Shown here: piece by piece, positions 2,661-63,936 of the stretch
Numbering within the stretch: the stretch's first letter is position 1
Layout: every line of letters begins with the position of its first letter
NCBI RefSeq assembly: GCF_029962835.1
Contig: NC_080573.1
Location: 37,255,001 to 37,319,000, forward strand
DNA length: 64,000 nucleotides
Direction of reading: 5' to 3'
Source of the DNA: Magnolia sinica
Taxonomy: Eukaryota > Streptophyta > Magnoliopsida > Magnoliales > Magnoliaceae
Translations under genes and position numbers: made by a program
The notes under the pieces: generated by a model
Database searches by the model: none
Told to the model about the DNA's origin: nothing
The model's input: only the letters and a program-made list of their open reading frames with translations

Positions 2661-2749
2661 GCTAAAAAAGACTCTATATGATCCGCCGGGTCTCCCGAAC
2701 CTGAATAGGGAGTTATCGGGGCATTCAGAATCTAGATAGTAACTAGGCT

Positions 2750-27690: not shown

Positions 27691-28660
27691 CACAACTCTT
27701 AACACATTATAACATTGACCCTTACCACGTTACAACATTGACCCATATCACATTACAACCACGACCCTGACCCTTATAACACAACAAGTTCGAACCTTAA
27801 CATATTACAACTACGACCTCGACCCTTATAACATTACAACCTCGACCTTAACCACATTGCAACCACAACGTCGACTCTTATAACATGACAAACCTTAACC
27901 CTTAACACATGATAATCTCGACCCTTATGACATTACAACTACGACCCCGACATTTATAACATGACAACCTCGACCTTTAACACATTACAACCAAGACCTC
28001 GACTCTTAGCACATTAAAACTAAGACCTCGACCTTTAACACATTACAACCACGACCTCGACCTTTACCCTTATCAAATTACAACCACGACCTCGACCCTT
28101 ATAACATGACAACCTCAACCCTTAGCGCATAAGAATATCTTACCTTTCACATGATAACCTCGACCCTCATTACGTTACAACCTCGACCCTTACCACATTA
28201 CAACCACGACTCTAACCGTTATAACATAACAACCTCGACCCTTAACACATTACAACAACGACCTTGACCCTTATAACATAACAACCTCGACTCTTAGCAC
28301 ATAACAATATCTACCCTTCACATGACGACCTCAACCCTTACCACATTACCACCTCGTCCCTTGCCATGTTATAACCATGACCCCGACCCAACACATAACA
28401 ATATCTACTCTTCACATGACAACCTCAAACCTTACCACGTTGCAACCTCGACCCTTACCACATTACAACCACGACGCCGACCCTTATAACATGACAACTA
28501 TGACCTTGAATTTTTTAACATGACGACCTCGACCCTTACCACATTATAACCATGACCCAAACACTTAACACATGACAACCTCGACCCTTAACACATGACA
28601 ACCATGATTCAAAACCTTAACACATGACAATCTCAACTCTTAACACATGAGAACTACGAC
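27690..28660. repeat. degenerate minisatellite, ~23- and ~29-bp units
   Basis: About 1 kb of alternating variants of two related units, ACATGACAACCTCGACCC plus a linker and ACATTACAACCACGACC plus a longer linker, repeated about 35 times with substitutions and small indels. Non-coding, strongly strand-asymmetric (C and A on the plus strand). A stub of the same array resumes at 34797-34840 after the LTR-like block that interrupts it. Confidence 0.85.
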
Positions 28661-40957: not shown

Positions 40958-42102
40958 TCAATCCTGGTAAACAGGAGCAGTCAGGGGCATGGACATGTCC
41001 TCTGAATCAAATTTCTCGACAAATAGTTTCAATCGATGTCCATTGACTTTAAACTCCTTGCCATTATCGGGATCTCTTATCTCAGCGGCCCCATGAGGAA
41101 AAACAGTAACAATAATGTAAGGGCCGGTCCAACGAGATTGAAGCTTACCCGGAAAGAGATGTAATCGATAATTGTACAAAAGGACCTTCTGACCAGGCGT
41201 GAATGATTTTCACAAAATGTGTTGGTCATGAAATGCTTTCATCTTGTCCTTGTAAATTCTCGAATTATCGTACACATCATTCTGGATTTCCTCAAGTTCA
41301 TTCAATTGAAGTTTGCATAGCGAGCCAGCGTTGTCCAGATTGAAATTAAGATTTTTGATCGCCCAGTACGCTTTATGTTCCAGCTCCACAGGCAAGTGAC
41401 AAGCTTTCCCATAGACAAGTCTAAAGGGAGACATTCCAATAGGGGTTTTAAAGGCAGTACGGTATGCCCATAAGGCATCGGTCAATCGGATTGACCAATC
41501 CTTACGATTAGGATTAACCATTTTCTCCAAAATGTGTTTAATTTTTCTATTAGAAATCTCAGCTTACCCACTTGTCTGTGGGTGATACGGGGTCCTCACC
41601 TTATGAGAGATACCGTATTTCTTCATTAAGCTCTCAAATGGTTTATTACAAAAGTGTGAGCCCCCATCACTAATGATGACTCGAGGCGTTCCGAATCGAG
41701 AAAGGATGTTTTCTTTTAGGAATTTAATAACCGTGCGATGGTCATTAGTTCGACACGGAATCGCTTCGACCCATTTAGTGACATAATCCACAGCGAGCAA
41801 AATATACAGATTTTCAAACGATTGGGGGAATGGTCCCATGAAATCGATGCCCCAGCAATCAAATGCTTCAATGATAAGGATGGGATTGAAAGGCATCATA
41901 TTTCGACGGGACAATGCTCCCAATTTCTGATAACGCTCACAAGCTTTGCAAAACTCATGAGTGTTCCTAAACATAGTGGGCTAGTAAAAGCCACACTGCA
42001 GAATCTTGGCCGTGGTCTTTTTAGCAGAAAAGTGACCATCACAGGCCTGTGAATGACAGAAGGAGATGACGCTTTGATGCTCATTGTCTGGTACACATCT
42101 CC
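40958..42102 (-). pseudogene. outer element integrase
   Basis: Zinc-finger remnant HEFCKACERYQKLGALSRR (the expected second CxxC Cys is Tyr), then the DDE core: GIDFMGPFPQSFENLYILLA with the first Asp, VIISDGGSHFCNKPFE with the second, and the Glu in [13 protein letters not shown]. The tail includes [20 protein letters not shown] and ends [10 protein letters not shown]. Single frame broken by TAA just after YHPQTSG (the usual Gln of QAE) and TGA after FHDQHIL. Both fit C-to-T changes (CAA and CGA). Confidence 0.8.
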
Positions 42103-42891
42103 TTAGGATTTAGTCTGGGCAATATTTAAATAAATAAGGATCATCTCAGAAAAAGTTACGCTCCTCGGTGAAGAATTTCTTCTTATCTTGCGTAGTCCAC
42201 TGTGTCGGTATGGAACCTGTGTTAAGATATAATTAGCAATATCAGCGAACCAAGGAGAATGGGAGACTCTGAACAGTTGTTCATCAGGGAACATATCATT
42301 GATATGGGTCACCTCAAGAGAATTAGAGGTATTAAGGCGAGGAAGGTGATCGGCTACTACGTTCTCTACTCCCTTTTTATCTTTAATTTTCAAATCAAAT
42401 TCTTGGAGTAGAAAGATCCATCGTATCAAACGGGGCTTAGAATCATTCTTAGAAAGAAGATACTTAAGTGCCGCATGATTTGTGTAGATAATAATCTTGG
42501 ATCCGATCAAGTAGGACCTAAATTTGTTCAAGGCGAACACTACAGCTAAGAGTTCCTTTTCCGTAGTCGAGTAGTTCACCTGGGCAGAATTTAAAGTTCT
42601 ACTTGCGTAATGAATGACATAGGGCCTCTTATCTTTTCTCTGGCCTAGGACCGCCCTAAGAGCATAATCAGAAGCGTCGCATATAAGCTCAAAAGGAAGG
42701 CTCCAGTTAGGTGGCTGCATGATAGGTGCAGTGGTTAACGTGCCCTTAAGCTTGGTGAAAGCTTCCTGGCATTGCTCAGTCCACTCGTACGGAGCATCCT
42801 TTTGAAGAAGATTACATAAAGAATGAGAGAGGAGACTAAAGTCCTTTATGAATCGCCTGTAAAATCCTGCGTGTCCTAAGAAGGATTGCAC
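42103..42891 (-). pseudogene. outer element RT connection and RNase H
   Basis: Starts [19 protein letters not shown], the usual RT thumb/connection, then RNase H with [17 protein letters not shown] (Asp), [18 protein letters not shown] (Glu) and [17 protein letters not shown], where the expected catalytic TDHAAL Asp is Asn. 262 codons without a stop, but the catalytic change argues against activity. Confidence 0.85.
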
Positions 42892-43445
42892 GTCTCTGAT
42901 GTTCTTAGGTGGATGTAGGTTAGAGATAAGATCGATTTTTTGCCTTATCTACCTCGATTCCCTTGGACGAGATGATATGCTCAAGGACAATTTCCTTCTG
43001 AACCATGAAATGACACTTCTCTCAATTAAGTACCAAGTTCTTTTCTTCACATCTTTTCAGCACACATTTAAGACTTTCCAAGCACTTGCTGAAAGATGGA
43101 CCGTAAACAGAGAAATCGTCCATGAAGACCTCTACATATTACCCCATCATATCAGAAAAGATACTATGCATACATCGCTGAAAGGTAGCAGGGGCATTAC
43201 ATAGTCCGAATGGCATCTTTCGGTAGGCAAAGGTGCCGTAGGGACATGTAAATGTGGTCTTTTCCTGGTCTTCAGGGGCTATCTCTATCTAGTTATAGCC
43301 CGAATACTCGTCAAGGAAACTGTAATAGGAATGACCAGCTAACCTTTCCAGGATCTGATCAATGAATGGTAAAGGAAAGTGGTCTTTCCTCGTGACGGTA
43401 TTTAACTTCCTTTAGTCAATGCACATTCTCCAACCAGTAGTGACT
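42892..43445 (-). pseudogene. outer element reverse transcriptase, C-terminal part
   Basis: From the nested insertion downward: TTGWRMCID then stop, RKLNTVTRKDHFPLPFIDQI, YGTFAYRKMPFGLCNAPATF, and the catalytic VFMDDFSVYG (43129-43115 for VFMDD), which is intact. At least four in-frame stops, several at positions where Gln or Lys is expected. Continues in the 56549-56935 segment across the insertion. Confidence 0.8.
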
Positions 43446-43450
43446 CTAGT

Positions 43451-46400
43451 TGTAACGCCCTGAAATTCGGGGGTCGAGCATAACTCAGCTCCCGAGTTCC
43501 AAAACATCACTTATGCAACATAATTAATGAATGATGTATGTTGACTGTATTAGCACATAAACATGGGATAGATTAAGCCAAAACGCAGATATGATTCAGG
43601 GATAAGTGAATAAAGCAAGCGGAAGACTTATAGTAAAATATGTGTACAAGTGTAAGTCCCTGAATTACATATACAACCAGATCGTGTAAAAGTGTTATTT
43701 ATCAAAATTATAAGTACAAGTTACATCATTTTAGATCCCAAAATAGTAATCCCATAGGTCCCGCGCAACTGACCGAGGCTCGCTAGAACCCGTCAGAAAA
43801 CTGCATATAGGAGAAGGCAGCCTCGTCGTCATCCAGCTCCCGCTCTGCCTCAGACGTCGCATCCACATCTGCAACATCAGGGCCTAAGACAGAGTCTGGT
43901 GGGTGTGAAACACCGCCCCAGAAACGTGGGAGTGAGTGATCAACTCAGTGGAACAATAAGGCACTGGTTAACATGCTATCAGTTCAATCAAACAATAATG
44001 ATAAAGCAGGACAATTAAATAAATCCTAAGTACTCTTGTTAATGCAGGTATGAATGCAATATGATGCGTGCCCTCACGCGTACACCCTCGCGTCTTCATC
44101 TTACGTTACGCATGACATCGCCTCAAAGTGCGCCACATCTACAAAGCACATGCAAATGCGGTGCATGGATATGATTACCAAGTTGTTATTAGTCCAATTC
44201 ATACAGGCAGATTGGGAAGCTAAGATACCTTCCTCATATCACCATCCAAACAGTGATCCATACTAGGGTCGTCAATCCTAGACATCTCATACGATCATAT
44301 AGTTGAGGTCGTAGCAAAGGGCTCGTCACCAATCAATGCACGCCTTTCATGCCCTTACTACCACAGATCGGCTCGTCACCTCCTTGCGGTATCCAGGTAT
44401 GCTCGAGGTCACTACAAAGGGCTCGTCACCAATCAATGTAGGCCGACAGCACGAATATAGTGTCCCATACCACCATAATCGGCTCACGAGTTTAGTTGCT
44501 CACTGGTCACTACGGGGAGGCTCGTCACCCCAGCGTAGGCCGACGGCTCGACCACGGTGTCCCATACCACCATGTCCGGCTCATGAGTCTTAGCGGATCG
44601 GTACCATGGTTATTAGGATTTCACTGGTAAGTTCGGTACCCTAGATTCAAGCAGAGTAGCGTCCATACATGGTTAACATACATCGGACAATCGGGTTAGT
44701 TGACGAACTCGACTAGCACGAGCGCACGTTGAATTGAACGACATAGAGTGCGCAAACACTCCGCGTGGCCAAACCACTGCCGCCAACTCAATACGACTCG
44801 GGTTCGTCTAATGCGTCTCACGTGGCGAAAGCAATCTCAACCACGACCAAAGGGTCAATTACCGATTTCCTGGACTAAGGCATAGTCCCAAACATCCTAC
44901 ACTACGACAAATATTCATATGGAATGTAAAACAGTAATGGAACAACCACTCAAATCATGGTGCATACACATCTGAAGAATATCAATTTAACATAAATGTA
45001 AGCATAGGAATGCTTGAATTTAAATAACTTGGAATGTAAATGCATAAGGAAATCATGCGCATCCATAGAAGTATTGAGAATCACTTCTCAACGCCTGCAT
45101 TTAGTGTAATCAGTTACACGTAGGTCATTCATGCATCTCTACAAACACTTAGCATCCATGGAACAACATACATGACGCATGTTGAAATACATGCACTTAG
45201 ACAATTCCTTCTTCCAAGGAGTTGTCATACATGCATCTAGCATACATACATGACCAAAAATCATGGCAAACATAGGTGCGTATTTTATACGTATACGGTA
45301 CTTTATAAATACACTTAGAATACACAAATCTCAACATAAGCACATGCATATCAAGAAAGCAATGTAAACATAACATTTGACATGTGAAATCTCATCCATA
45401 ACAAGAATAAATCACTATCGGGATTGAAAGCCTTGAAAACCATAACCTATACACTTAAAGTCCGCACCTTAAGCGAGGAAAGAATAGCCGAACTGATTTA
45501 GACGAGTTGTCTTCGTCAACGGCGCAAGAATACCCTAAAATAAGGATAGAAATGAGATACAACAACACCAAGTCTAATCTAAGCTCTAACACAAATTAGG
45601 GTTAGTTTAACTTACCCCAAAAGAACTCAGAACCGTCAGAGGAACGATTCCAAGTAAAGGCTCAAAGGTGAAGCAGAACAAGGAAGAATCAAGATGATTC
45701 ACCAACCAATCTCTCTCACTAACTCTCTCTTTTCCACTCTCTTTCCAAGCTAGGGTTAGAGAAAATTCGTATGGAAATGAGAACTAGGGTTTAAGGACTA
45801 TATATAGGCCTTAAAATGATGGAAATAACCCGGGTCAAGGTATACTTAGGTTATAACCAAAGTACGCCTTTCTCGATCCAACGAAGCACTTGGTGGGCCT
45901 ATAACCACGAAAGGTCGGACTTAAGCTCACCGACCATGGATCTAGGTCGCGAGTTTCGGATCTACAGATCAGCGGTGGCGGACCACACTCAATTCAACGG
46001 TCACAAAATCTATCAAGTCCACAAGCACTAGGATATGCCCGGGCCAACCATCCTGATCGGAGGGTGAAATTGGGTCGAATCCAACGGTCGAATGCTTAAA
46101 ATCGTCGCGAAAACGACTCAATTTCATAAAAAGCTTATTAAATTCCAACCGTTCTCACACTCTTCACTCCGAACTCAACCAAATCGACCAACATCGGATC
46201 GACTTGATTTTTGAGGTGAAGACCAAGCCCAACTTAGTGACCAATAACCTAAGATCATCGCCATCGGACTTTCGACGCGGTCCAGTCTGATCCAGACTTC
46301 CAAAAATTCCCCAAAACAACCGGATTTAGCGATGGATCCCAGATTTCATAACGTAGAGCTCACTAATCTGCACGTTTAGATCCATGCAGATACGATTTAA

Positions 46401-46501
46401 AGTGATTGATGCGAATTTCACAAGCAATCAAGTAAAGCGCTAATTACCCCAAAAACAACTACTTAAGGAAAGATTAGCACAAAAATTCCAAGGTCGTTAC
46501 A
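43451..46501 (-). repeat. 3' LTR of the nested chromovirus
   Basis: 3051 bp, partner of 53467-56543. TATA-like CTATATATAG on the minus strand at 45807-45798, followed by a leader with 'ttaaaccctagttctc'. The short open frames inside are not conserved genes. Confidence 0.9.
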
Positions 46502-46516
46502 ATCTACCCCCTAAAG
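46502..46516 (-). promoter_or_regulatory. polypurine tract of the nested element
   Basis: Minus strand CTTTAGGGGGTAGAT directly before the 3' LTR. Confidence 0.75.
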
Positions 46517-46535
46517 AAAATTTCGTCCTCGAAAT

Positions 46536-47042
46536 TCATACCTTCATATAATCCTCGAGGATCGGAGGGTAGGTCTTCCTGACCTCGTCAGATTCCCAAG
46601 TAGCCTCTCCTACGCCATGATGCGACCATAACACCTTCACGAGAGGGATAACCTTGCTACGCAGCACCTGCTCCTTTCTATCCAGAATACGCGTTGGTTG
46701 CAGTACATAAGTGGCATCCTCACTTAACTGCACTTGCTCCCAACTAATAATATGCGAAGGATCAGGAACGTACTTCTTCAGCATAGAAACATGAAATACG
46801 TTATGCACGCCCGCAAGAGGTGTGGGCAAAGCAAGGCGGTAAGCTACCGCTCCCACTCGATCCAAAACTTGAAATGGACCAATAAATCTCGGCGTCAGCT
46901 TCCCCTTCTTACCGAACCGCAGAACTCCCTTCATAGGAGAGACCTTCGAAAAAACATGATCTCCCACTACGAACTCAAGCGGTCGACGCCTCGAAGGCAT
47001 AACTCTTCTCCTGCTCTGCGCTAAAGTCGACGTCGAATGATG
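46536..47042 (-). pseudogene. nested element integrase tail with chromodomain
   Basis: Basic SH3-like part (EFVVGDHVFSKVSPMKGVLR and KLTPRFIGPFQVLDRVGAVA, then YRLALP and VHNVFHVSMLKKYVPDPSHI), then a chromodomain-like segment: ILDRKEQVLRSKVIPLVKVL and EATWESDEVRKTYPPILED. This combination is typical of Del/Tekay chromoviruses, whose chromodomain guides integration to heterochromatin. 154 codons are open; upstream the frame is lost. Confidence 0.8.
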
Positions 47043-47905
47043 TCAACCTTCTCTAAAGTCACCGCACCAACTTCGGGCCAAGCAAACTACGCTCACCAAT
47101 TTCGCCCAACAATGTGGTGCTCGCACGGCGACCATACAACGCCTCGAAGGGAGCCATGCCGATACTCGCCTGAAACTATTATTATACGCGAACTCGGCAT
47201 ACTGAAGAATCATCCCAACCGTCTTTGAAATCCAAAACACAAGCTCGCAACATATCCTCCAGACTTGATTCACGCGCTCCGTCCGCCCATCTGTTGCGGA
47301 TGAAACGCGGTGCGACTAGCAAATCCATCGCTTCCTGGATACGAGTCCGGAAGATAGATGTAAAACGCGTGTCTCTATCAGAACAATCTCCAGGGGAACT
47401 CCATGTCGACGCACTATCTCCTTGATATACAACCTAGCCAACTCGTCTGCAGAGTAAGTGACTCGATCGGTAAGAAATGCGCCGACTTCGTTAATCGATC
47501 GACGATCACCCAAATAGAGTCAAATCCCTTTCTCGTCCTCGCCAACCCAGAAATAAAATCCATAGAGATGAAATCCTATTTCCATTCAACTATGGGCATG
47601 GGCTGCAACCACCTAGGAGGTCGGTGATGCTCTGCCTTGACCTGCTGGCACGAGAGACACCGAGAAACAAATTCAGCAAACTGGACCTTCCTATTGTCCC
47701 ACCAATAAGACCTCTTCATATCCTGATACATCGTCGTGCTACCTGGATGCATCGCAAGCTTAGAACTATGGGCTAACTCGAGAACCTCACGTCTCAAGTC
47801 GGGATGTCGGGAACACATAACCGCCACGAAATCGTAGGCCCCCATCAGAACTAACACTCCAATCGGAGTTCCCATCTGTACCACCCGCGGCCTCATCTTC
47901 ACCAA
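47043..47905 (-). pseudogene. nested element integrase: zinc finger and core
   Basis: 47905-47576 gives the HHCC finger (LELAHSSKLAMHPGSTTMYQ and SRCLSCQQVKAEHH, then RPPRWLQPMPIVEWK). The catalytic core below 47575 is scattered over several frames: [32 protein letters not shown] and, near 47150, GMAPFEALYG. The breaks coincide with sites where an expected CTG or CAG appears shortened, e.g. the codons after YGRR. Probably mis-assembled rather than truly broken (see findings). Confidence 0.7.
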
Positions 47906-49050
47906 AAGCTCATCATCCGCCTGAGCCGCAACGATCCTCTCGTCGATAAGGCTCTACACGAATGTGTGCGATAACCTCATACGGCTCAACCACCGTAAGC
48001 TTCGCTCAAAATCGCGCACGAACTCCAACATCTCCCACTCGGCTCATCATCGGAGCCGCAAACTCAAAGCCTTCTTGCGACTCAACGCATTCGCCACAAG
48101 GTTTGCCTTACCAGGATGGTAAGAAACATCGAACTTGAAGTCCTTCAATGTTTCCATCCATCTGCGCGGCCTCATATTCAAATCACGCTGCGTGAAAATA
48201 TACTTAAGGCTCTTGTGGTCGCAAAAGAGCTCGAACTCCTCACCATAAAGGTAATGTCTCCAAAGCTTTAATGCGAAGATGACGGCTCTCTCGGTCGTGC
48301 GTAGGGTAATTCTCTTCGTGTTTTCTTAATCGACGCGAAGCATAAGCAATCACCCCGTCCTTCTGCATAAGGACACAACCTAGACCAACGCGAGAGGCGT
48401 CGGTATATATAATATACTTAACCCCTTGCTCGCAATATTAGCACAGGGCGGACGTCAACTTGTCCTTCCGCTCCTGAATAACTCCGCCCGCTCACTCCAA
48501 GCAAACTTCAAATCCTTCCGTGTCACCTACGACAACGGTCCGGCAATCTTCGAGAAGTCCCGAATAAAGCGTCGATAATATCCTCAAGGCCAAGAAAACT
48601 CCTCACCTCGAAAATCGAACCAGGCTTCCTGCACTGCACCTACCTTGGCAAGGTCGACGCTATACCTTCCTTGGACACCACATGTCCCAGAACTTGACTT
48701 CCTCTTTCCGGAAATCACACTTCTTGACTGTGCGAAAAGCTGATGCTCCTAAGAGTACCCAAAACCGCTCTTAAGTGCTCCTCGTGCTCGCCGGCTCGCC
48801 GAATAAATCAAGATGTCATCAATAAATACAATGACGAATCGAAACAGAAAGGCCGAAATACCCTGTTCATCGATCCAAGAACACGGCCGGTGCGTTCGTA
48901 GTCCAACGACATCACAAGGAACTCATAATGACCGGAGCTAGTCCTGAAAGCGGTCTTCCGTCTTCTTCTCTGACTCTCAACTGATGATACCTCGATCGCA
49001 GATCAACCTTCGAAAAGTACCGTGCCCCCTTCAATCGATCAAACAGATCA
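47906..49050 (-). pseudogene. nested element RT core and RNase H, frame-scattered
   Basis: Recognisable in pieces on the minus strand: [37 protein letters not shown] and the intact catalytic box FVIVFIDDILIYS (48842-48803). RNase H fragments follow to about 47950. At least six small frame jumps. Confidence 0.65.
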
Positions 49051-49677
49051 TCAATCCTCGGGCAAGGGGTACTTATTCTTCACACTTACCAAATTCAACC
49101 TGCGATAATCAATACACAATCGCAAGGAACCATCCTTCTTCTTCACAAAAAAAGTGCTCCCCAAGGAGACACACTGGGCCGAATAAAACCCAATTCTAGC
49201 AAACCATCTATCTCGCTTCCTCAACTCCTCCATTTCACTCGGAGGCATCCGATAGGTGGGTAAAGAAATGGGTGCCGCACCAGGCATAAGATCGATAGCA
49301 AAATCAATCTCACGCTGAGGAGGTAATCCAGGAATCGACTCAAACACATCTTCAAACTCCTGAACCACCGGTGTACTAACCAACGCAGACTCGGCCGAAC
49401 TCTCCAACAGAGAAGAATAAAAATCAATACGAATAGGGTAATTGCTGAACCGGGAAAGTAACAATCTCGCCCTCAGTCCATGGATCGTCACCGATCTCGC
49501 TTCACAATCAATCTCACCGCATCCTCGTGAGCCAATCCATACCCATAATAACATCGTAGTGATAAGCGGTGCGACTAGCAAATCAACACGGATCGATCCA
49601 CTTCCCGGATCGACCAAACAATCCATACAACGCTTGCCCAAGGCGGAGGACATCCCCGTAGCGGTAGTAAGCGTCAC
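49051..49677 (-). pseudogene. nested element protease-RT linker and RT start
   Basis: 208-codon frame with [40 protein letters not shown] and [10 protein letters not shown], then [20 protein letters not shown] and KYPLPED. This is the usual Ty3/gypsy RT entry. The region just before (residues 1-110) is the diverged protease tail. Confidence 0.8.
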
Positions 49678-50210
49678 TCCGGTATAGGAACAGATCTCAA
49701 ACCCAAACGCCTAACCGCATAAGAAATAAGAGCAGTAGTGGACCCTGTAGCCACTAGCACAGAAACGGGAATACCTTCTATATGCGCTGTCACCTCAAAG
49801 GACCTCGGCACCAAGTCAGACATAGGCGCTTCTGCTGAAAGCGCATGAACACGAGCCTGCTGCTGACGATTCGGCGGAGGAACCATGGGCCGCTGAGGTG
49901 GCCTGAAACCAGGAACTGCAGGTCTGAAGGATGGATGAGCTGGCGCTGATCGAAGAGGAGGAGGAGAAATAACCGGAGGCATCGGACGGCTAACCCTCTG
50001 CGGTGGAGTAAAACCACCTGCTCGCATACGGGAAAAGCAGAAACGGTCCAAGTGCCCAACCTTTCCACAATAAGAACATCTCAGATCAGCTCTCATCTGC
50101 TGAGCGGGCGGCGCTGAACGCCTAGGAGGAGAATCAACACGCGGCCTCTTGCCAAGGAAAGGTGCACCCTGGAAATCCGGTCTCGGCCTAGGAGGCATCG
50201 GTGCTCGCAT
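49674..50210 (-). pseudogene. nested element gag zinc knuckle and protease
   Basis: Pro/Arg-rich segment, zinc knuckle CSYCGKVGHLDRFCF (CX2CX4HX4C), a long Pro-rich linker, then the aspartic protease flap FEVTAHIEGIPVSVLVATGS and [13 protein letters not shown]. The expected catalytic DTG/DSG triad reads ATG (Asp to Ala), which would abolish protease activity if real. Confidence 0.75.
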
Positions 50211-51091
50211 GCGGGACGCTCTATCTCCGTCCTACTCTGCTCGCAAGGACATGCTCACTAGCTCCGCATATGAAGAAATGCCAGCACAGCAAATCTTCGA
50301 TCGGATCTCAGGTCGCAGCCCCTCGGAAAAACGCCGCATCCTCATCGGCTGATCACCCAGGATCAAAGGAACATACCGCCCCAACTCAGGAAACCGGTTC
50401 TCATACTCCGTAACCGACAACCCTCCCGGCGGAGGCGAAGGAACTCACTCTCCTTCTCATGTCGTTACTAACCGGAAATACTTCTCGTGGAAGCGCGCCT
50501 CAAACGCCGCCACGACCACACGAAGTCCTCTTCGACAGTGCGAAGACACTGTCCCACCACAAACCGGCCTCCTTCTCAAACATGAAGGTGGCAAGCTCAA
50601 CTGCTCGACCTCAGAGCAGTGTAGCGGCCTCAAGATCTTAGAGATGCGGTCAATCCAATACTCGGCCTCCTCGGGTCGTGAGAACCCGCAAAGTAGGAGG
50701 TCTCAAGCGCTGAATCGCTCGAATGTGCCGCTAACACGCACTGGCACTCCCGGATGGAGGCATAGGTGAAACAGTTGGAGTCGCCCTATCGACTGAGCAA
50801 AGATGCCACCATGGAGGAGAGGGAACTCCCGCTGCGCTGCGGCCGCCGCTGCTGGCTAATCCGCCGATCAACAACATCATCTGCCTCAAACCTATCAACA
50901 GTGAAGTAGAAGAAGGTGCATGGCTCGGCTCAGAAACCGAGGGTGTGACCGGAGGAGCCATAGGTGTCGACCCAACACCAACACGAGATGGACCGCCTGC
51001 GGATCTGAATGGCTATCGCTCAAGGGAGGAACCCCCTCAAGCGACTCAATCAGAGAAAGACGGGCCAAGTCTTCGAACCCTTAGGAGGCAT
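50211..51091 (-). pseudogene. nested element gag capsid, frame-scattered
   Basis: A likely ATG at 51091 (MPPKGSKT). MAPPVTPSVSEPSHAPSS appears from 50961, and the capsid signature SVTEYENRFPELGRYVPLIL with RMRRFSEGLRPEIRSKI appears from 50420. Between these the frame jumps several times. Capsid domain of Ty3/gypsy gag. Confidence 0.65.
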
Positions 51092-51404
51092 CCCTACATT
51101 AAATCAAAGGATGCAACCTGTCCGATTCTAAGTCACATAATCCATCCACACAACAACAACACAACAGCACAACACCAAAACAAACCACATGCATTCCATT
51201 AACCAAAATCGTCGCAATACAAGTAGTGCAACAATACATGAATCACGACTAGGAAAGCATGAAAACAACAACATCTAACACTACAAACAACCACAACTAC
51301 TACAACCACTAACACTACCACACTACAACAACTCCAACTACAAGCCAACAACGGCTACACACGAGAAAGAAACACCAAACAAAGCAAAGACGGCCACGAC
51401 GATG
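51092..51404 (-). other. spacer between extra frame and gag
   Basis: 313 bp. On the plus strand low-complexity A/C repeats (caacaacac, ctacaacc) fill 51140-51350; no frame. Could be the gag 5' leader. Confidence 0.6.
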
Positions 51405-52609
51405 CTACTCGTCAGACGGAGACGGAGGCGGAGCACCCTTATCCTCCAAGCAACACAGGATAGACTTCAAAGTCCGGACATCTTCTTGAACTTGTGCTTA
51501 ACCAAGCCTCGAAGATCCACCATCTCTTGGCGAAAGCCGCTTGCCCTTCTTCAAGCCGTGTAAGACGGGCATCTCTCGCAATCTGCTCTGCGCCTCTGGC
51601 ACCACAGGAGGAGAGCGATCACTCGAATCCTGTGCCCCAATCTCTTCCTCGTCTTGCTCTGCTTCTTCCTCAGACTCCGCACCACCTTCAGCATAACTCT
51701 CATCATCACTCTCAGACCCGGCCTCACCCTCAGAGGCAAGCCGACCAGAACCAACCTTCATCAGCTTAAGGGTCCTCAAGTTGATATAGCGAACAGGGAC
51801 CGGCTTCTCAGCTCCAAGCCTATAGCCAAACTCATGTGCGATCTTGCAAATGAGGCGGCCAAAGGGAAGAGACTCGGTCCGTCTACTCGAACGAGCGATG
51901 AGAATAATCTGACGCAGGATGTACGTCGGCGCACACAACTTCGCATCCTGCCACCTGATATAGAAAATCTACCATCAGGCGCGTACACTCGCTGCGGTTG
52001 CTCCACCTGGGATACACATTGAACGTAAAGATGTGGTGAAGCAAACGGAAGTCGTCCGTCATGTGAGAAGCCAAAAGACTCCTATTCGGCTGCCATTCGA
52101 CCAGACGACCACGGCGACGATCCCTCTCGCGCACACTGTCCACATTCTTCTCGCGGGCATGCACTTCCCCAAGTGGCACCTTCAAGAGTCGGGATATCAA
52201 AGCAACATTGACAATTCCAACTCGACCGCTACCACAGGAAATCTTGAACTGCAGAATCCAGCGAAGGCTCCCGAATGTTGGCATAGAAGGCCCGAACAGT
52301 GCTAGCATTCGCGCGATACTCGCCTTCGAACAAGGGACCCCAACCAGCCCCTTCTAGGCGCTCCAACAAAAAGAACTCACCAAAGAGCCGCGGATCAACA
52401 TGAGCCTCAAAAAGGACTCTATGCCCCTCATAGACTCCATGCGACAATTCCGCCAACAAGGTCCTACTGACAGGAGCTCGAGGATCGAGGTCCCGCTTCG
52501 TCTGGAACTCGCGCGTGGCGGACGTGCTAGCGGCGGCACCTCTCGGCCTCCGTGCACGGGTTGGGCGGCTCGGCCCGGCTTCATCCACGGGCGCTCTCTT
52601 CTTCCCCAT
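51405..52609 (-). pseudogene. extra frame (aORF) upstream of gag in the chromovirus
   Basis: Sense-strand frame starting MGKKRAPVDEAGPSRPTRAR at 52609. Pieces in order: a basic, nuclear-localisation-like N-terminus; LLERLEGAGWGPLFEG and STVRAFYANIREPSLDSAV; VALISRLLKVP; LASHMTDDFRLLHHIFTFNV; PTYILRQIILIARSS; LPFGRLICKIAHEFGY; then an acidic Ser/Glu-rich tail and a C-terminal coil (AQVQEDVRTLKSILCCLEDK) ending PPPSPSDE and TAG at 51405. The order 'FYAN… / L..I…NV.P / FG.LI..I…G' matches the domain that plant annotation pipelines call 'putative plant transposon protein' (from memory). No catalytic motif recognised. Two frame jumps and one in-frame TAA (51498) interrupt it. It lies between the primer-binding site and gag, where canonical Del/Tekay elements carry none that I know of. 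Confidence 0.65.
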
Positions 52610-53452
52610 CAAGGAAAGAAGGGAAGAAATGGAAAAGATGGCCGTCACAATCTCAAAGAGGGCCATGAGAAATGAGAGAAAGAGAGAAATAGGAAGATGG
52701 TGAAGCTTCCACACAACTATGAGCCAAAAAGGGAATGAAAGGGCTCAAATGAGAGGGAAAAATGGAGAAATCAGCAATGGAATAGAAGATTTGAGAATGG
52801 GGTGATGGGTTTGCACGAAAATGGAAGGAAGATGAAGATTTGGGAGAGACTTGCGAGAGTTTGGAGACGTTGTTGCAGAAAAGGAGAGCTTGGAAGAGGG
52901 TTTTGTAAAGGAAAGAGGTAAAATGAGTGGATTTAAAGTGAAACCCGTGGAGGGTGGGCCACACAAGCCTCATGGACGATCGGCCCGCGTCGGCCGCCTG
53001 GCCCGCCGATCGGCGATCTCTCGCCGAACCGGCGATGGCATCGCGGTCTCTGGACATATCGGCGATGCCTCGCCGATTTGGCGAGGTCCTCTGGTCCTCC
53101 TTGGTCCAAATGATGTGGTTCCCCACGGGTCCCACGGAAAATGCCCCGATTGGCCCCTTGTGTAATTTGAAGTTTATCGGGTCATTCTGACAGACAAACA
53201 GCGATTTCTGGAAGGTTTAAAAATGAATAATGGGAGGGTAGACCATCTACACTCATTAATAGAGGGTCTAGAACAGGTTTCGGGTCGCTGTGTGTGATCA
53301 GGTAATCTCGGCAAAGGTTTTCAGGAAACTTTCGCCGATAGAAACTACGGAGCACAAACACAAAGCGATGATAGACCCGCACCCAATTACACTATAGTGG
53401 TGACAACGTGCGGTGTGTGACCATAACCTATGTCCGGTTTAATCCAGATCAT
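52610..53452 (-). other. 5' untranslated leader of the nested element
   Basis: Between primer-binding site and the extra frame. Includes short repeats of 'ccgatcggcgat' (52975-53085: gatcggc, ggcgatctc, ggcgatggc, ggcgatgcc) that could form RNA structure, and a Phe/Ser-rich open frame of no recognisable type. Confidence 0.5.
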
Positions 53453-53464
53453 GCTCGATACCAA
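53453..53464 (-). promoter_or_regulatory. primer-binding site, initiator Met tRNA
   Basis: Minus strand TTGGTATCGAGC starts 2 bases after the 5' LTR. The canonical complement to plant initiator Met tRNA is TGGTATCAGAGC; the site lacks the A of CAG, matching the indel pattern of this element. Confidence 0.75.
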
Positions 53465-53466
53465 CT

Positions 53467-56400
53467 TGTAACGCCCGAAATTCGGGGTCGAGCATAACTC
53501 GACTCCCGAGTTCCAAAACATCACTTATGCAACATAATTAATGAATGATGTATGTTGACGTATTAGCACATAAACATGGGATAGATTAAGCCAAAACGCA
53601 GATATGATTCAGGATAAGTGAATAAAGCAAGCGGAAGACTTATAGTAAAATATGTGTACAAGTGTAAGTCCTTCGAATTACATATACAACCAGATCGTGT
53701 AAAAGTATTATTTATCAAAATTATAAGTACAAGTTACATCATTTTAGATCCCAAAATAGTAATCCCATAGGTCCCGCACAACTGACCGAGGCTCGCTAGA
53801 ACCCGTCAGAAAACTGCATATAGGAGAAGGCAGCCTCGTCGTCATCCAGCTCCCGCTCTGCCTCAGACGTCGCATCCACATCTGCAACATCAGGGCCTAA
53901 GACAGAGTCTGGTGGGTGTGAAACACCGCCCCAGAAACGTGGGAGTGAGTATCAACTCAGTGGAACAATAAGGCACTGGTTAACATGTTATCAGTTCAAT
54001 CAAACAATAATGATAAAGCAAGACAATTAAATAAATCCTAAGTACTCTTGTTAATGCAAGGATGAATGCAATATGATGCGTGCCCTCACGCGTACACCCT
54101 CGGCGTCTTCATCTTACGTTACGCATGACATCGCCTCAAAGTGCGCCACATCTACAAAGCACATGCAAATGCGGTGCATGGATATGATTACCAAGTTGTT
54201 ATTAGTCCAATTCATACCAGATTGGGAAGCTAAGATACCTTCCTCATATCACCATCCAAACAGTGATCCATACTAGGGTCGTCAATCCTAGACATCTCAT
54301 ACGATCATATAGTTGAGGTCGTAGCAAAGGGCTCGTCACCAATCAATGCACGCCTTTCATGCCCTTACTACCACAGATCGGCTCGTCACCTCCTTGCGGT
54401 ATCCGGGTATGCTCGAGGTCACTACAAAGGGCTCGTCACCAATCAATGTAGGCCGACAACAGCACGAATATAGTGTCCCATACCACCATAATCGGCTCAC
54501 GAGTTTAGTTGCTCACCGGTCACTACGGGGAGGCTCGTCACCCCAGCGTAGGCCGACGGCTCGACCACGGTGTCCCATACCACCATGTCCGGCTCATGAG
54601 TCTTAGCGGATCGGTACCATGGTTATTAGGATTTCACTGGTAAGTTCGGTACCCTAGATTCAAGCAGAGCGTCCATACATGGTTAACATACACCGGACAA
54701 TCGGGTTAGTTGACGAACTCGACTAGACGAGCGCACGTTGAATTGAACGACATAGAGTGCGCAAACACTCCGCGTGGCCAAACCACTGCCGCCAACTCAA
54801 TACGACTCGGGTTCGTCTAATGCGTCTCACGTGGCGAAAGCAATCTCAACCACGACCCAAGGGTCAATTACCGATTTCTGGACTAAGGCATAGTCCCAAA
54901 CATCCTACACTACGACAAATATTCATATGGAATGTAAAACAGTAATGGAACAACCACTCAAATCATGGTGCATACACATCTGAAGAATATCAATTTAACA
55001 TAAATGTAAGCATAGGAATGCTTGAATTTAAATAACTTGGAATGTAAATGCATAAGGAAATCATGCGCATCCATAGGAGTATTGAGAATCACTTCTCAAC
55101 GCCTGCATTTAGTGTAATCAGTTACACGTAGGTCATTCATGCATCTCTACAAACACTTAGCATCCATGGAACAACATACATGACGCATGTTGAAATACAT
55201 GCACTTAGACAATTCCTTCTTCCAAGGAGTTGTCATACATGCATCTAGCATACATACATGACCAAAAATCATGGCAAACATAGTGCATATTTTATACGTA
55301 TACGGTACTTTATAAATACACTTAGAATACACAAATCTCAACATAGCACATGCATATCAAGAAAGCAATGTAAACATAACATTTGACATGTGAAATCTCA
55401 TCCATAACAAGAATAAATCACTATCCTGGGATTGAAAGCCTTGAAAACCATAACCTATACACTTAAAGTCCGCACCTTAAGCGAGGAAAGAATAGCCGAA
55501 TTGATTTAGACGAGTTGTCTTCGTCAACGGTGGAAGAATACCCTAAAATAAGGATAGAAATGAGATACAACAACACCAAGTCTAATCTAAGCTCTAACAC
55601 AAATTAGGGTTAGTTTAACTTACCCCAAAAGAACTCAGAACCGTCAGAGGAACGATTCAAAGTAAAGGTTCAAAGGTGAAGAAGAACAAGGAAGAATCAA
55701 GATGATTCACCAACCAATCTCTCTCACTAACTCTCTCTTTTCCACTCTCTTTCCAAGCTAGGGTTAGAGAAAATTCGTATGGAAATGAGAACTAGGGTTT
55801 AAGGACTATATATAGGCCTTAAAATGATGGAAATAACCCCTGGTCAAGGTATACTTAGGTTATAACCAAAGTACGCCTTTCTCGATCCAACGAAGCACTT
55901 GGTGGGCCTATAACCACGAAAGGTCGGACTTAAGCTCACCGACCATGGATCTAGGTCAGCCTGAGTTTTCGGACCGACCGGCTCTACAGATCACCGTGGC
56001 GACCACACTCAATTCAACGGTCACTAAATCTCGATCATGTCCACAAGCACTAGGATATGCCTGGGCCAACCATCCTGATCAGAGGGTGAAATTGGGTCAG
56101 AATCCAACGGTCAGAATGCTTAAAATCGTCGCGCAAGCGACACGACTCAGATTTCATAAAAAGCTTATTAAATTCCAACCGTTCTCACACTCTTCACTCC
56201 GAACTCAACCAAATCGACCCAGAACATCAGATCGACTTGATTTTTGAGGTGAAGACCAAGCCCAACTCAGTGACCGCAACAGCCTAAGATCATCGCCATC
56301 GGACTTTCGACGCGCGGTCTAGGTCCGATCCAGGTCTTCCAAAAATTCCCCAAAACAACTGGATTTAGCGATGGATCCCAGATTTCAGAGTAATGTAGCG

Positions 56401-56543
56401 CTCACTAATCTGCACGTTTAGAGCCATGCAGATACGATTTAAAGTGATTGATGCGAATTTCACAAGCAATCAAGTAAAGCGCTAATTACCCCAAAAACAA
56501 CTACTTAAGGAAAGATTAGCACAAAAATTCCAAGGTCGTTACA
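53467..56543 (-). repeat. 5' LTR of the nested chromovirus
   Basis: 3077 bp, near-identical to 43451-46501. TATA-like CTATATATAG on the minus strand at 55815-55806. Differences from the partner are a handful of transitions plus more than twenty 1- to 4-base indels, and several larger ones in the last 600 bp. Confidence 0.9.
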
Positions 56544-56548
56544 CTAGT

Positions 56549-56970
56549 TGGCACGAGTTCATTATTAGCATTGGCTACGATGGTGATTCCGGACTTCTTA
56601 GGGACCACTTGAGTTGGACTCACCCATTGACTATCAGATATAGGGTATATGATACCCACGTCCAATAGTTTAAGAACCTCGGCCTTAACCACTTCCTTCA
56701 TGTTTAGATTTAGTCTACGTTGTGGTTGCCGAGCGGTTTTTGCATTATCCTTAAGATATATGCGGTGAGTACAAATCGAGGGATCGATTCCCTTAAGGTC
56801 CGCTATCGTCCATCCCAGGGCTCCTTTATGCTCAATGAGAGTAAATATGAGCATACTCTCCTGTTCTTTCTTCAGGTGGGAAGAGAACACCACCGGGTAT
56901 GTCTCATCTTGACGCTCTGATGATACTAAAGGCAAGGGACGGACTCCACCAGGTATGTCTCATCTTGAGG
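56549..56970 (-). pseudogene. outer element pre-RT and RT N-terminal part
   Basis: LIFTLIEHKGALGWTIADLK and GIDPSICTHRIYLKDNAKTA, RQPQRRLNLNMKEVVKAEVL, KLLDVGIIYPISDSQWVSPT and QVVPKKSGITIVANANNELV, then the CTAGT target site. Typical Athila/Tat RT entry, no stop. The reading continues across the nested insertion at 43445. Confidence 0.85.
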
Positions 56971-60875: not shown

Positions 60876-63300
60876 TTACATTTTTATGGATCTTAGTCTC
60901 ATTCCTTTAATGGTTCTTCTTATCTGATTTCTTAATAAATCTTTTGTCAAGGGATCTGCTAAGTTCAGGATGGATTTAACATATTCCACTGTGATTACTT
61001 CATCTCTGAGCAATCCTTTAACAAAGTTATGCCTTAGACCTATATTTCTAGACTTAACATTATAAGTCTTACTCATAATATGACAAAGAGTAGCTTGACT
61101 ATCACAAAAGATAGATATAGCAGGAGTAGGTTTTGACTAATATGGGATTTCCATCAGTAGGTATCTTTGCCATTCACCTTCTTTACAAGCAGCGCCAAGT
61201 GCAATAAACTCACTTTCCATTGTAGAGTGAGATATACACGTTTGTTTTTTAGATTCCCATGATATTTCTCCTCCTTTAAGAGTGAATATCCAGCCACTTA
61301 TAGATTTAGATTCTATGCTATCTGCATTCCAGCTTACATTGTTGTACCCTTCAAGTACAGCGGGATATGATTTATAATGCAATCCATAGTTTATGATTTC
61401 TCTTAGATATTTTAAAATTCTCAAAATCACATTCCAGTATACTTGTCCTGGATTACTGGTATACCTGCTTAACATTCCTACTGTGAATGCTATATCGGGT
61501 CTAGTGCAATTCATTGCATACATTAAACTCCCAATAGCACACACATATTCTTGTTGTGCTTTATATCTACCAGTATTTTTAACCAATTTAATACTTGGAT
61601 CAAATGGGGTTGAAACCGGTTTATCATCATAATGATTAAACTTCTTTAACACTTTCTCTAGGTAATGAGATTGTATTAAGGCTATTCCATCATTAAGATT
61701 ATAAATCTTAATACCTAATATTACATTGACTTTGCACATATCCTTCATGTCGAATTTGGTACTTAGGAACTTTTTAGTTTCTTTCACATAGTCCTCATTT
61801 GGTCCAAATATTAGCATATCATTTACGTATAGGCAGATAATGATTTGACCTTTAATATATATGCACTTAATTACTTAGTTTACTCTAAAATCATTAGATT
61901 GTACTACTTGATCAAACTTCTCATGCCATTGTTTAGGAGCTTGCTTGAGCCCATAGAGAGATTTGACCAGTTTACACACTTTCTTCTCTTGCCCGGGTTG
62001 AATAAACCCTTCAGGTTGTTCCATATAGACTTTCTCATCTAGAACACCATTTAAGAATGCCTTTTTGACATCCATTTGATGGATTACTAAGTGATGAATT
62101 GCTGAAAGAGCAATTAAAGTCCTAATGGTAGATATTCGAGCAACAGGAACATATGTATCGAAAAAATCGATACCTTCCTTTTGTCTAAATCCTTTGGCTA
62201 CCAATTGAGCTTTAAACTTATTTATGGTTCCATCAGGATTGAACTTTCTTTTAAAAATCCATTTACATCATATAGGCTTTGAACCTAGTGGAAGATCGAC
62301 CAAACACCATGTGTTATTGGAGACTATGGAATCCATTTCATCGTCAATGGCTTCCCTCCAAAACTGTACATCAGGAGATGAGAGAGCTTCACTAAGTATT
62401 GATGGATCACTTTCAATACTTAGTGGTAGAGTAATATCTTTTCTTATTTCATTTCTATCCCCTTTTATAAGGAACATATATAAATCTGGGCCAAAAGATG
62501 TTTCTTTTCTTGCCTTTGTCGATCTCCTTAGTTCTTTTTCTTCTGGATGAGTATTAGATTTATCATGAAAGTTGTTAAGCTCTTCGTTCATTGGTTCTAT
62601 TATATTTTCATCAACCTGCCCTTTTGTATAATTATTCATATAGTCTTTGTATACTGTATTTTCAAAAAATATAGCATCTCTAAACTCTATAATCATGTTT
62701 TTGTCAGCAAAAGAAGTTTGTTCTAGAACCAGGAATCTATATACTGGACTATTAATCCCATAACCCACAAAAGTACACCTGATTCCTCTAGGACCTAATT
62801 TTACTCTCTTAGAATCAATAATCCTGACTTTTGCTATACTTCCCCATAATTTGAAGTAATGAACATATGGTTTCTTCTTTTTCCATAATTCATATGGGGA
62901 GATATCTAATTTTTTGTGTGGGATAACATTTAAAATATGGTTTGCTGTTAATAATGCTTTCCCCCACAAATTCAGTGATAATCTAGAATTTGATATCATA
63001 CAGTTGATCATTTCAACTAATGTCCTATTTTTGTGTTCCACGAGGCCATTTTGTTGAGGTATGTAAGGTGCCGTAAATTCATGGATTATACCATTTGATT
63101 CACAGAATTTATTGAATTCATTAGAAGAGTACTCACCTCCTCTATCACTTCTGAGGGCTTTAATCTTTACATTCAACTGATTTTCTACTTCGACCTTATA
63201 AAGCTTAAACTTTTTAAAGGCTTCATCTTTATATTTTATCAAGTATACATATGAAAATCTAGTGAAGTCATCAATAAATGTGATAAAATACCTTTTTCCT
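60876..63300 (-). pseudogene. Ty1/copia pol: integrase, RT, RNase H
   Basis: One continuous reading frame with three in-frame stops. Integrase core: TFIDDFTRFSYVYL (Asp), IKALRSDRGGEYSSNEF (Asp), YIPQQNGLVEHKNRTL (Glu). RT: MDVKKAFLNGVLDEKVYMEQ and SLYGLKQAPKQWHEKF, with the catalytic box YVNDMLIFG where YVDD is expected. RNase H: NADSIESKSISGWIF, TMESEFIALGAACKE, CDSQATLCHIM and GLRHNFVKGLLRDEVITVEY. Stops at 62268 (TGA for the usual Gly before CKW), 61875 (TAA, probably Glu) and 61137 (TAG, probably Trp). The order INT-RT-RH marks Ty1/copia. No frameshift, so decay has been by substitution. Confidence 0.88.
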
Positions 63301-63936
63301 TAACGAGTTCAGGTATTATTTAAATCACAAATATCAGAATGAATTAACTCTAAGGGTTGTGTTTTTCTCATGCCAGTCCCAAACGGTTTCTGGTTATTTT
63401 AGAATGGGCACACACATCACATTTTCCTTCTTGTTGTATTTCATATTTAGGTATAAGTCCCAGGATCATCATTCTTTTCATTAAATGATAATTAACATGA
63501 CCTAGTCTAGCATGTCATAAAGATCTGAATCTACTATATAAACGGAAACATCATTATTATTATTAATATTTAGTTTAATCATACCATTACATGAATATCT
63601 TTTGCCAACAAACATACCATTCTTTGTGATAACCAACTTACCAGACTCAATCACTATTTTGAATACTCTCTTATTGAGAAGATCGCCTGACACTAGATTT
63701 TTAGACATGTCAGGTACATGTAATACATTTGTTAGTGTCAGTCTTTTGTCTGATGTAAACTGAAGCTCGACTGTTATTTTTCCAACAACGTTCGCACAAA
63801 CGTTATTACCCATCTTCACTTCTTGTCCAGTTGTAATACCTTCATAGGTCTTGAAGATGTTTCGGTCCTTCGATATGTGAATGGTTGCACCAGTATCTAG
63901 CCACCATCCATCATCGGATATTATTGTATTAGCTTA
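63301..63936 (-). pseudogene. Ty1/copia protease and integrase zinc finger
   Basis: From 63936 down: ANTIISDDGWWLDTGATIHI with the protease DTGA triad (63900-63883), NVLHVPDMSKNLVSGDLLNK (gag-pre-integrase region) and YSCNGMIKLNI, stop near 63502, then KYEIQQEGKCDVCAHSK, the CxxC half of the integrase HHCC finger (about 63395-63490), and further stops. A TAA lies directly before the protease at 63936. Confidence 0.8.

What the first reader, a model, noticed from the sequence alone, without database searches (positions are those of the whole stretch)
51405..53464. Extra reading frame between primer-binding site and gag in a chromovirus
The nested 13.1-kb element has LTRs, PBS, gag, pol and a chromodomain-like tail in the expected Del/Tekay order, but also a ~400-codon sense-strand frame ahead of gag. 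The frame has a basic start, a conserved-looking middle (VRAFYANI, LLHHIFTFNV, FGRLICKIAHEFG), an acidic tail and a C-terminal coil. The middle resembles the plant family annotated as 'putative plant transposon protein'. I know of no such frame in canonical Del/Tekay elements, so it may be a captured host or transposon domain kept as an accessory protein.
Basis: partly seen in the sequence, partly recalled or inferred. Interest (0 to 1): 0.78.

Follow-up and report, generated by a model that had tools for sequence, protein, structure and literature searches.

The report
Conserved extra gene in plant retrotransposon
A very abundant plant retrotransposon family carries, ahead of its usual genes, an extra protein gene that selection has kept about as carefully as the standard ones; such extra genes were already known in related elements, but here it bears a recognisable domain, which gives a handle on what these mystery genes are.

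Summary
Between primer-binding site and gag of a 13.1-kb chromodomain Ty3 element (minus strand, 43451-56543) lies a ~409-codon sense frame, 52609-51405, frameshifted in this copy. It is a family feature in this genome: in the same place in 20 of 20 copies picked by the frame, 6 of 6 picked by its Pfam profile and 12 of 12 picked by pol alone. 8 of these 38 keep it uninterrupted. All 8 copies scanned match PF20167 (Transposase_32, 'putative plant transposon protein') at 47-72 bits, cut-off 45. Between subfamilies pN/pS is 0.25, against 0.26 for gag-PR-RT and 0.98-1.50 in wrong frames. One copy of a related Ty3 family of the genome lacks the frame.

New, as far as searched, is PF20167 in a chromovirus 5' ORF, with selection evidence. 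Likely role: a nuclear accessory protein that can act in trans; biochemistry and origin are unproven.

The parts
53467..56543 (-). 5' LTR (3077 bp), flanked by CTAGT at 56544-56548
   Evidence: blastn of the two LTRs 96.8% identity (40 mismatches, 32 gap openings over 3095 columns); termini TGTAACG/CGTTACA
53449..53466 (-). Primer-binding site, AGTTGGTATCGAGC.. (one base short of TGGTATCAGAGC; iMet type, name recalled)
   Evidence: TGGTATCAGAGC or one change from it in all 21 stretches (window and L009-L028)
52610..53448 (-). Leader, looks non-coding, rich in upstream ATGs (11 before the frame's ATG in copy L026, one of them the in-frame Met)
   Evidence: ratio 0.65-1.05 in all three frames; ATG positions
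51405..52609 (-). Extra frame (ORF0-like), MGKKR.. to stop, 409-410 codons in open copies; frameshifted here
52487..52609 (-). Basic N-terminus of the extra frame (MGKKRAPVDEAGPSRPTRARRPRG)
   Evidence: ratio 0.15 main x far; 0.28 old x main
51831..52348 (-). PF20167 (Transposase_32) domain; lower bound placed by analogy with open copies (codons 88-265)
   Evidence: sub-threshold and colinear in two pieces (profile 3-31 and 61-132; 14.4 and 15.1 bits); over the cut-off in 8 of 8 copies scanned; ratio 0.17 and 0.20
51575..51745 (-). Acidic linker, least constrained part (approximate bounds)
   Evidence: ratio 0.66; 0.49
51405..51574 (-). C-terminal coil-like, partly basic tail (approximate bounds; coil judged by eye)
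   Evidence: ratio 0.34; 0.28
51092..51404 (-). T/G-rich spacer between extra frame and gag; acceptor-like CAG|GTTGCATCC before the gag ATG in the 6 copies read
49674..51091 (-). gag (ATG 51091), zinc knuckle and start of protease, broken in this copy
   Evidence: weak, sub-threshold zinc-finger/zinc-knuckle and protease matches; Retrotrans_gag 54 bits in copy L022
46536..49710 (-). pol: RT, RNase H, integrase; frameshifted; SH3_Tf2-1 and chromodomain at 46545-46964
   Evidence: Integrase_H2C2 1.6e-15, SH3_Tf2-1 3.3e-27, Chromo 0.021 (below cut-off); copy L021 Chromo 26.0 bits over cut-off 25.1
43451..46501 (-). 3' LTR (3051 bp), flanked by CTAGT at 43446-43450

Best explanation
The frame is a genuine accessory gene (ORF0-like 5' extra ORF) of a high-copy Tekay-type chromovirus family. 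Shown: fixed position between PBS and gag, a PF20167 domain, and purifying selection about equal to gag-pol across the family's subfamilies. Inferred: it is made from the element's RNA as a ~409-residue nuclear accessory protein. The basic N-terminus would serve nuclear entry or nucleic-acid binding, the PF20167 core is the functional unit, the acidic linker and C-terminal coil would serve spacing and self-association, and the protein would help the element's RNA, cDNA or integration complex in the nucleus or blunt host silencing. It can probably act in trans, because copies sharing one and the same broken frame have multiplied.
For: Presence: 20 of 20, 6 of 6 and 12 of 12 pol-selected copies (L042 read only in part). 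Uninterrupted in 8 of 38. PF20167 at 50.7, 58.3 and 47.2 bits and 51.0-71.9 bits in 5 of 5, cut-off 45. pN/pS, old subfamily x main: extra frame 0.25 (shifted frames 0.98 and 1.50), gag-PR-RT 0.26 (1.06 and 1.31). Main x far: 0.26, against gag 0.24, gag-PR-RT 0.31, integrase 0.23-0.30. Leader control 0.65-1.05. Constraint is strong in the PF20167 core and the stretch before it and weakest in the acidic linker. A 2-nt deletion at the same place is shared by 5 copies (window, L009, L010, L012, L015), which fits propagation of a defective lineage.
Against: No transcript or protein evidence was available. The nuclear role rests on composition and on predictions published for 5' ORFs whose homology to this one is untested. 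11 upstream ATGs in the leader of L026 make plain ribosome scanning to the frame, and then to gag, difficult, and no donor of 7/9 or better was seen in that leader. 29 of 38 copies have an interrupted or altered frame. Ratios within closely related copies are higher (0.40 main x main, 0.37 far x far; 0.31 old x old), and wrong-frame controls in some of these smaller comparisons fall to 0.71-0.81 for the extra frame. The shared lesions might also be spread by recombination or arise repeatedly.
Confidence: 0.72

Rival explanations
1. The frame is a decaying passenger: a transduced or inserted piece that hitchhiked in one amplified master and has no function for the element.
For: 29 of 38 copies have an interrupted or altered frame; the window copy has several frameshifts; some extra ORFs are explained by transduction (PMC11963269, passage).
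Against: pN/pS 0.25-0.28 between subfamilies, like gag-PR-RT, with ratios near or above 1 out of frame in the same comparisons and 0.65-1.05 in the leader; the open copies aligned differ in length only by whole residues.
Confidence: 0.06
2. It is the same ancient gene as the grass ORF0 (Retrosat2/RIRE3/RIRE8) and perhaps the Athila PF20167 ORF: one old accessory module inherited by, or swapped between, plant Ty3 lineages.
For: Same position, similar long LTRs (3.05-3.08 kb against more than 3.2 kb) and overall size; ORF0 of Retrosat2 relatives shows Ka well below Ks (PMC3485330, passages); alpha/beta core in the grass 5' ORFs and a long C-terminal coil in the maize and sorghum ones, and PF20167 in sunflower Athila 14 (PMC11728184, passages).
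Against: Grass ORF0 gave no hits outside its relatives, sunflower Tekay 5' ORF showed no amino-acid similarity to the grass ones, and no known domain was found in the sunflower one (same papers, passages). No grass or sunflower sequence could be compared here.
Confidence: 0.3
3. The domain was captured independently in this lineage from another mobile element or host gene after it split from other chromoviruses.
For: The one copy read of a related Ty3 family in the same genome has only about 170 nt between PBS and gag and no similar frame; extra ORFs are described as independently acquired from multiple sources (PMC6317226, passages).
Against: Only one copy of one other family was read; loss in that family explains it equally well; no donor was found in the window, the protein collection or the viral contigs.
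Confidence: 0.45
4. The frame is an N-terminal gag-like or structural part of the polyprotein, not a separate accessory protein.
For: It lies directly upstream of gag; frame start and gag start have the same phase in copies L025 and L026.
Against: It ends in a stop about 300 nt before gag, the phase varies (0, 0, 1 and 2 in L025, L026, L028 and L027), gag has its own ATG and Retrotrans_gag domain, and gag-deleted copies such as L023 and L024 keep the frame with its own stop.
Confidence: 0.06

Closest known systems
Retrosat2 / RIRE3 / RIRE8 family (Tekay clade, grasses) with ORF0
   Same: Ty3 element, LTRs of about 3 kb or more, over 12 kb in all (Retrosat2, FRetro3), extra sense ORF between 5' LTR and gag-pol, dispersed and abundant; mean Ka below Ks for ORF0 (PMC3485330, abstract and passages).
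   Different: ORF0 is reported in grasses only and without similarity outside its relatives; no PF20167 assignment in what I saw. Here the frame has a clear PF20167 domain. Homology not tested.
Sunflower Tekay group 2, 5'aORF (Tekay 13-2)
   Same: Tekay element, ~400-residue sense 5' ORF, in 500 of 523 group-2-like elements, nuclear signal predicted, C-terminal helix (PMC11728184, passages).
   Different: Reported as mostly disordered, proline-rich and not similar to known domains; the nuclear signal is C-terminal there, the basic stretch N-terminal here.
Athila 14 ORF(+) of sunflower with Transposase_32 (PF20167)
   Same: Same Pfam domain (partial similarity, positions 133-312), in a 487-residue sense extra ORF of a plant Ty3 element (PMC11728184, passages).
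   Different: Non-chromovirus (Athila) lineage; called 3'aORF(+) in that paper, whereas this one lies before gag in a chromodomain element.
Ogre, Retand and Athila extra ORFs (plant mobile domain, Transposase_28, Athila ORF-1)
   Same: Extra ORFs that carry a named domain in a good part of a lineage (PMC6317226, passages).
   Different: Other domains (PF10536, PF04195, PF03078) and other lineages; none of these was matched by the 5 open frames scanned at E up to 10.

Membership tests
Tekay (Del) clade of chromoviruses | Ty3 order gag-PR-RT-RNaseH-IN with chromodomain at the IN C-terminus | tested here: met
   Pfam on the window and copies: Retrotrans_gag, RVP_2, RVT_1, RT_RNaseH, Integrase_H2C2, SH3_Tf2-1; Chromo 26.0 bits (cut-off 25.1) in L021, below cut-off in the window
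Tekay (Del) clade of chromoviruses | Type II chromodomain (first and usually last aromatic-cage residues missing) | tested here: inconclusive
   By-eye alignment to a recalled HP1 motif suggests the first and third cage residues are not aromatic; definition from PMC6317226 (passage)
Tekay (Del) clade of chromoviruses | RT/RNaseH/IN phylogeny inside Tekay | not testable with these tools
Tekay (Del) clade of chromoviruses | tRNA-Met type PBS next to the 5' LTR (iMet type recalled) | tested here: met
   TGGTATCAGAGC or one change from it in 21 of 21 stretches
5' extra-ORF (ORF0 / 5'aORF) chromoviruses | Sense ORF of at least 250 codons between PBS and gag, shared across copies | tested here: met
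   Present in 38 of 38 copies, 12 of them chosen by pol alone; uninterrupted in 8 of 38, one (L042) open as far as read
5' extra-ORF (ORF0 / 5'aORF) chromoviruses | Sequence homology of the ORF to grass ORF0 or sunflower 5'aORF | not testable with these tools
   No grass or sunflower sequences were at hand; the protein collection gave no relative at E up to 0.001, viral contigs none
PF20167 Transposase_32 | Profile score over the curated cut-off (45 bits) | tested here: met
   47.2-58.3 bits in the 3 copies, 51.0-71.9 in 5 of 5; the window's own broken pieces are below it (14.4 and 15.1 bits)
PF20167 Transposase_32 | Transposase activity | not tested
   The family name is an annotation; no catalytic motif or activity was established
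Athila ORF-1 (PF03078) | Profile match | tested here: not met
   No PF03078 hit at E up to 10 in the 5 open frames (HMMER filters drop most very weak matches); the genome-wide PF03078 search did not complete

The most novel reading that the evidence does not exclude
PF20167 proteins are one ancient, exchangeable accessory module of plant Ty3 retrotransposons: the seemingly unrelated ORF0s of grass, sunflower and this plant's Tekay elements and the Athila extra ORF are diverged forms of one nuclear helper protein that moved between chromovirus and non-chromovirus lineages.
Probability: 0.25. Interest if true: 0.68.

Novelty: new variant of a known kind. Interest (0 to 1): 0.47.

Why it matters
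Thousands of extra ORFs are listed in plant LTR retrotransposons, most without domain or known function. Here is one with a named domain, in a very abundant family of a 1.84-Gb genome (13,875 first-look candidates for the domain, of which 150 were scored), with selection about as strong as on gag-pol. That makes it a good case for asking what these proteins do, and gives a profile with which to test whether the orphan ORF0s of other Tekay elements are its relatives. It also suggests that some plant genes annotated 'putative plant transposon protein' may be retrotransposon accessory genes, not DNA-transposon transposases.

Tried and rejected
Private insertion in this copy: rejected, the frame is in 38 of 38 copies. 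Chance open frame: rejected by the wrong-frame and leader controls. The leader's own longer frames (up to 195 codons) as further genes: ratio 0.65-1.05, no support. The upstream Met at 52666 as start: the 19 extra codons show ratio 1.04, though with few changes. A spliced route to gag: acceptor-like sites lie before the gag ATG, but no donor of 7/9 or better was found in the leader of L026, only two inside the frame; consensus recalled, unproven. A donor in the Athila-like element that hosts the insertion: no match with the frame's profile elsewhere in the window; best other hit E 0.068. Relatives elsewhere: none at E up to 0.001 among 7,998 scored candidates, none in IMG/VR. Solved structures: two matches, Transcription elongation factor 1 (E 0.0007) and nucleoplasmin (E 2.9), both over the acidic part or its edge; judged compositional, not tested further. 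Structure prediction: switched off. PF03078 in the own genome: tool busy each time.

Literature limits: searched one open-access library; PF20167 was found in one paper only (PMC11728184, on Athila). That is not proof that nothing else is in print. Steinbauerova et al. 2011 was not read; its abstract (chromovirus extra ORFs only in Poaceae) is recalled.

Bias: searches list only the 150 best of 22,168 and 13,875 candidates. The 20 copies were chosen by me to cover three hit classes, so frame-intact rates from them are not genome rates. The 12 pol-selected copies were spaced down the list, but all of that list is at least 87% identical to the window over the matched part, so presence is shown for this family, not for all chromoviruses. 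The old-subfamily stretches are 6 kb and end within RT, so their gag-PR-RT comparison covers only part of that region.

Full report
What was claimed.

Anatomy. The element is on the minus strand, 43451-56543 (13,093 bp), with LTRs 53467-56543 and 43451-46501, 96.8% identical by blastn (40 mismatches, 32 gap openings, 3095 columns), and CTAGT on both sides. It sits inside an Athila-like pol (see noticed items). Downstream of the 5' LTR come AGTTGGTATCGAGC (PBS; TGGTATCAGAGC or one change from it in 21 of 21 stretches), an 839-nt leader, the frame (ATG 52609, stop 51405), a 313-nt T/G-rich spacer and gag (ATG 51091). pol carries Integrase_H2C2 (1.6e-15), SH3_Tf2-1 (3.3e-27) and a weak chromodomain (0.021) in the window; copy L021 has the chromodomain just over its cut-off (26.0 against 25.1 bits). 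The window's frame is broken into four overlapping stop-free pieces. Two of them match PF20167 weakly but colinearly (profile 3-31 and 61-132).

Is it in other copies? A six-frame search of the window's own genome (G000, 1.84 Gb, 127 contigs) with one piece gave 22,168 first-look candidates, of which the best 150 were scored, all at E below 1e-55. Twenty copies were fetched. All 20 are colinear with the window from the LTR through the frame (L019 with a gap in its LTR). To avoid choosing on the frame itself, 12 copies were taken at intervals from the top 150 hits of the integrase-chromodomain piece (19,343 candidates), and the expected frame stretch was read: 12 of 12 carry it at 88-95% nucleotide identity (L042 read only to window 51805). 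Six hits of the PF20167 profile (13,875 candidates, best 150 scored, all over the cut-off; none in 14 control genomes) were also read: 6 of 6 are a diverged ('old') subfamily of the same element with the frame in the same place. The frame is uninterrupted from MGKKR to its usual end in 8 of these 38 copies: L023, L024, L026, L028 (of 20), L030, L032 (of 6), L041, L044 (of 12). L042 is open as far as read; the other 29 are interrupted or altered. So most copies are broken, as expected of old insertions, but the family's coding form is clear.

What does it encode? Open copies give 409-410 residues: a basic start (MGKKRAPVDEAGPSRPTRARRPRG), a PF20167 domain at about residues 88-266, a strongly acidic linker and a coil-like C-terminus (coil by eye). 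PF20167 scores are 50.7, 58.3 and 47.2 bits (the last two from copies with an altered frame) and 71.9, 69.1, 56.4, 55.5 and 51.0 bits, against a cut-off of 45. No other Pfam family reaches its cut-off in these frames; the rest are weak matches to the acidic part and tail.

Is it selected? Uncorrected Nei-Gojobori proportions, summed over pairs. Main x far copies: extra frame pN/pS 0.26 (68 pairs), shifted frames 1.03 and 1.30; gag 0.24; gag-PR-RT 0.31; integrase end 0.23; RNaseH-integrase 0.30. Old subfamily x main: extra frame 0.25 (174 pairs; shifted 0.98 and 1.50), gag-PR-RT 0.26 (85 pairs; shifted 1.06 and 1.31). Old x far: 0.28 (shifted 0.94 and 1.29) against 0.25. The leader gives 0.65-1.05 in all frames. 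By part, old x main: basic start 0.28, residues 42-87 0.17, PF20167 0.20, acidic linker 0.49, C-terminus 0.28. Less clean results: within groups the extra frame gives 0.40 (main), 0.37 (far) and 0.31 (old), gag-PR-RT 0.41, 0.31 and 0.43, and wrong-frame controls in some small comparisons fall below 1 (lowest for the extra frame 0.71, old x old; lowest of all 0.55, integrase end, far x far, 3 pairs). Pairs are not independent and include neutral decay after insertion, which pushes ratios up. The 19 codons before MGKKR show 1.04.

Can it be missing in relatives? Copy L026 is interrupted in gag by another Ty3 element of the opposite sense, 63-67% identical in pol (its chromodomain was not checked). 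One copy of that family was read (L047): PBS at 2462, gag-like frame from 2629, and no match to the extra frame's profile better than E 0.23. So the same genome holds a related family with the canonical layout; only one copy was read.

How it may work. Shown: coding, selected, family-wide. Inferred: a nuclear accessory protein. It probably acts in trans. An identical 2-nt gap is shared by 5 copies (window, L009, L010, L012, L015), and a single gag deletion is shared by 6 of 20 copies (L009, L011, L012, L018, L023, L024; five show the same junction letters and L018 differs by one). These 6 are drawn intermixed with gag-bearing copies on trees of the extra frame and of RT. Many forks there are weak; one starred pair joins gag-less L018 with gag-bearing L010, and the tool's label count compared gag-less rows with the old subfamily only, so it does not test the mixing. 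Defective genomes have thus probably been copied with help and have probably recombined. How ribosomes reach the frame past 11 leader ATGs (L026, one of them the in-frame Met), and then gag, is open; the splice scan was not convincing.

Against what is known. Extra ORFs of at least 250 codons were catalogued in 3,372 Ty3/gypsy elements, in 314 similarity groups, with 21.4% of all extra-ORF proteins showing any CDD similarity (PMC6317226, passages). Retrosat2, RIRE3 and RIRE8 (LTRs about 3 kb or more; Tekay elements according to PMC11728184) have ORF0 before gag-pol, not found outside grasses by those authors, with mean Ka 0.257 and Ks 1.647 for ORF0 (PMC3485330, abstract and passages). Sunflower Tekay group 2 has a 402-residue 5' ORF in 500 of 523 copies, not similar to known domains; PF20167 was found in a sunflower Athila ORF (PMC11728184, passages). 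The present frame therefore belongs to a known kind, 5' extra ORFs of Tekay elements, and is a new variant: it has a clear PF20167 domain and selection evidence on a par with gag-pol. I saw no paper placing PF20167 in a chromovirus, within one open-access library.

Verdict. Real, ordinary in kind, informative in detail. The claim of an unknown frame type in Del/Tekay is not upheld; the accessory-gene reading is.

Noticed in passing
window 40961-42948 and 56516-56959, minus strand: The chromovirus sits inside the pol gene of an Athila-like Ty3 element: RT start on the right, RNase H and integrase pieces on the left (judged by eye from the frames).
   Followed up: partly
L009, L011, L012, L018, L023, L024 (window 51164 to about 49611): Six of 20 copies share one gag deletion but keep the extra frame and pol. 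They do not cluster on trees of the extra frame or RT, which suggests recombination with gag-bearing copies.
   Followed up: partly
L021 (window 51183 to 49575) and L034 (frame at 2159-3946): Two further gag losses with different junctions; in L034 the extra frame runs directly into RT sequence (596-codon open frame).
   Followed up: partly
L047 2462-4000 (turned to element sense): A second abundant Ty3 family of this genome, related in pol, with about 170 nt between PBS and gag and no extra frame in the one copy read.
   Followed up: partly
window LTR pair 43451-46501 and 53467-56543: Indels are many beside substitutions (32 gap openings, 40 mismatches). Some copies also carry many short gaps in the frame (window, L015). 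Biology or assembly error is undecided.
   Followed up: no
L018, L019, L020, L021, L022 (codon 249 of the frame counted from the upstream Met): The same 2-nt gap occurs in main-group and in diverged copies inside a GTGTGTG run, so it looks recurrent or recombined; downstream codons stay constrained in the original frame.
   Followed up: partly
window 21624-23555, minus strand: Long LINE-like reverse transcriptase frame of 441 codons followed by 201 more (by eye).
   Followed up: no
window 27680-28653: Array of imperfect direct repeats with start spacings of 23, 29 and 52 bases among others.
   Followed up: no
window 61137-63933, minus strand: Ty1/copia-like pol in several frames (by eye).
   Followed up: no
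window 51091-51160, minus strand: Before the gag ATG lies CAG|GTTGCATCC in 6 of 6 copies read (preceded by TGA in 4) and TGTAG|GG in 5 of 6: acceptor-like sites without a strong leader donor.
   Followed up: partly
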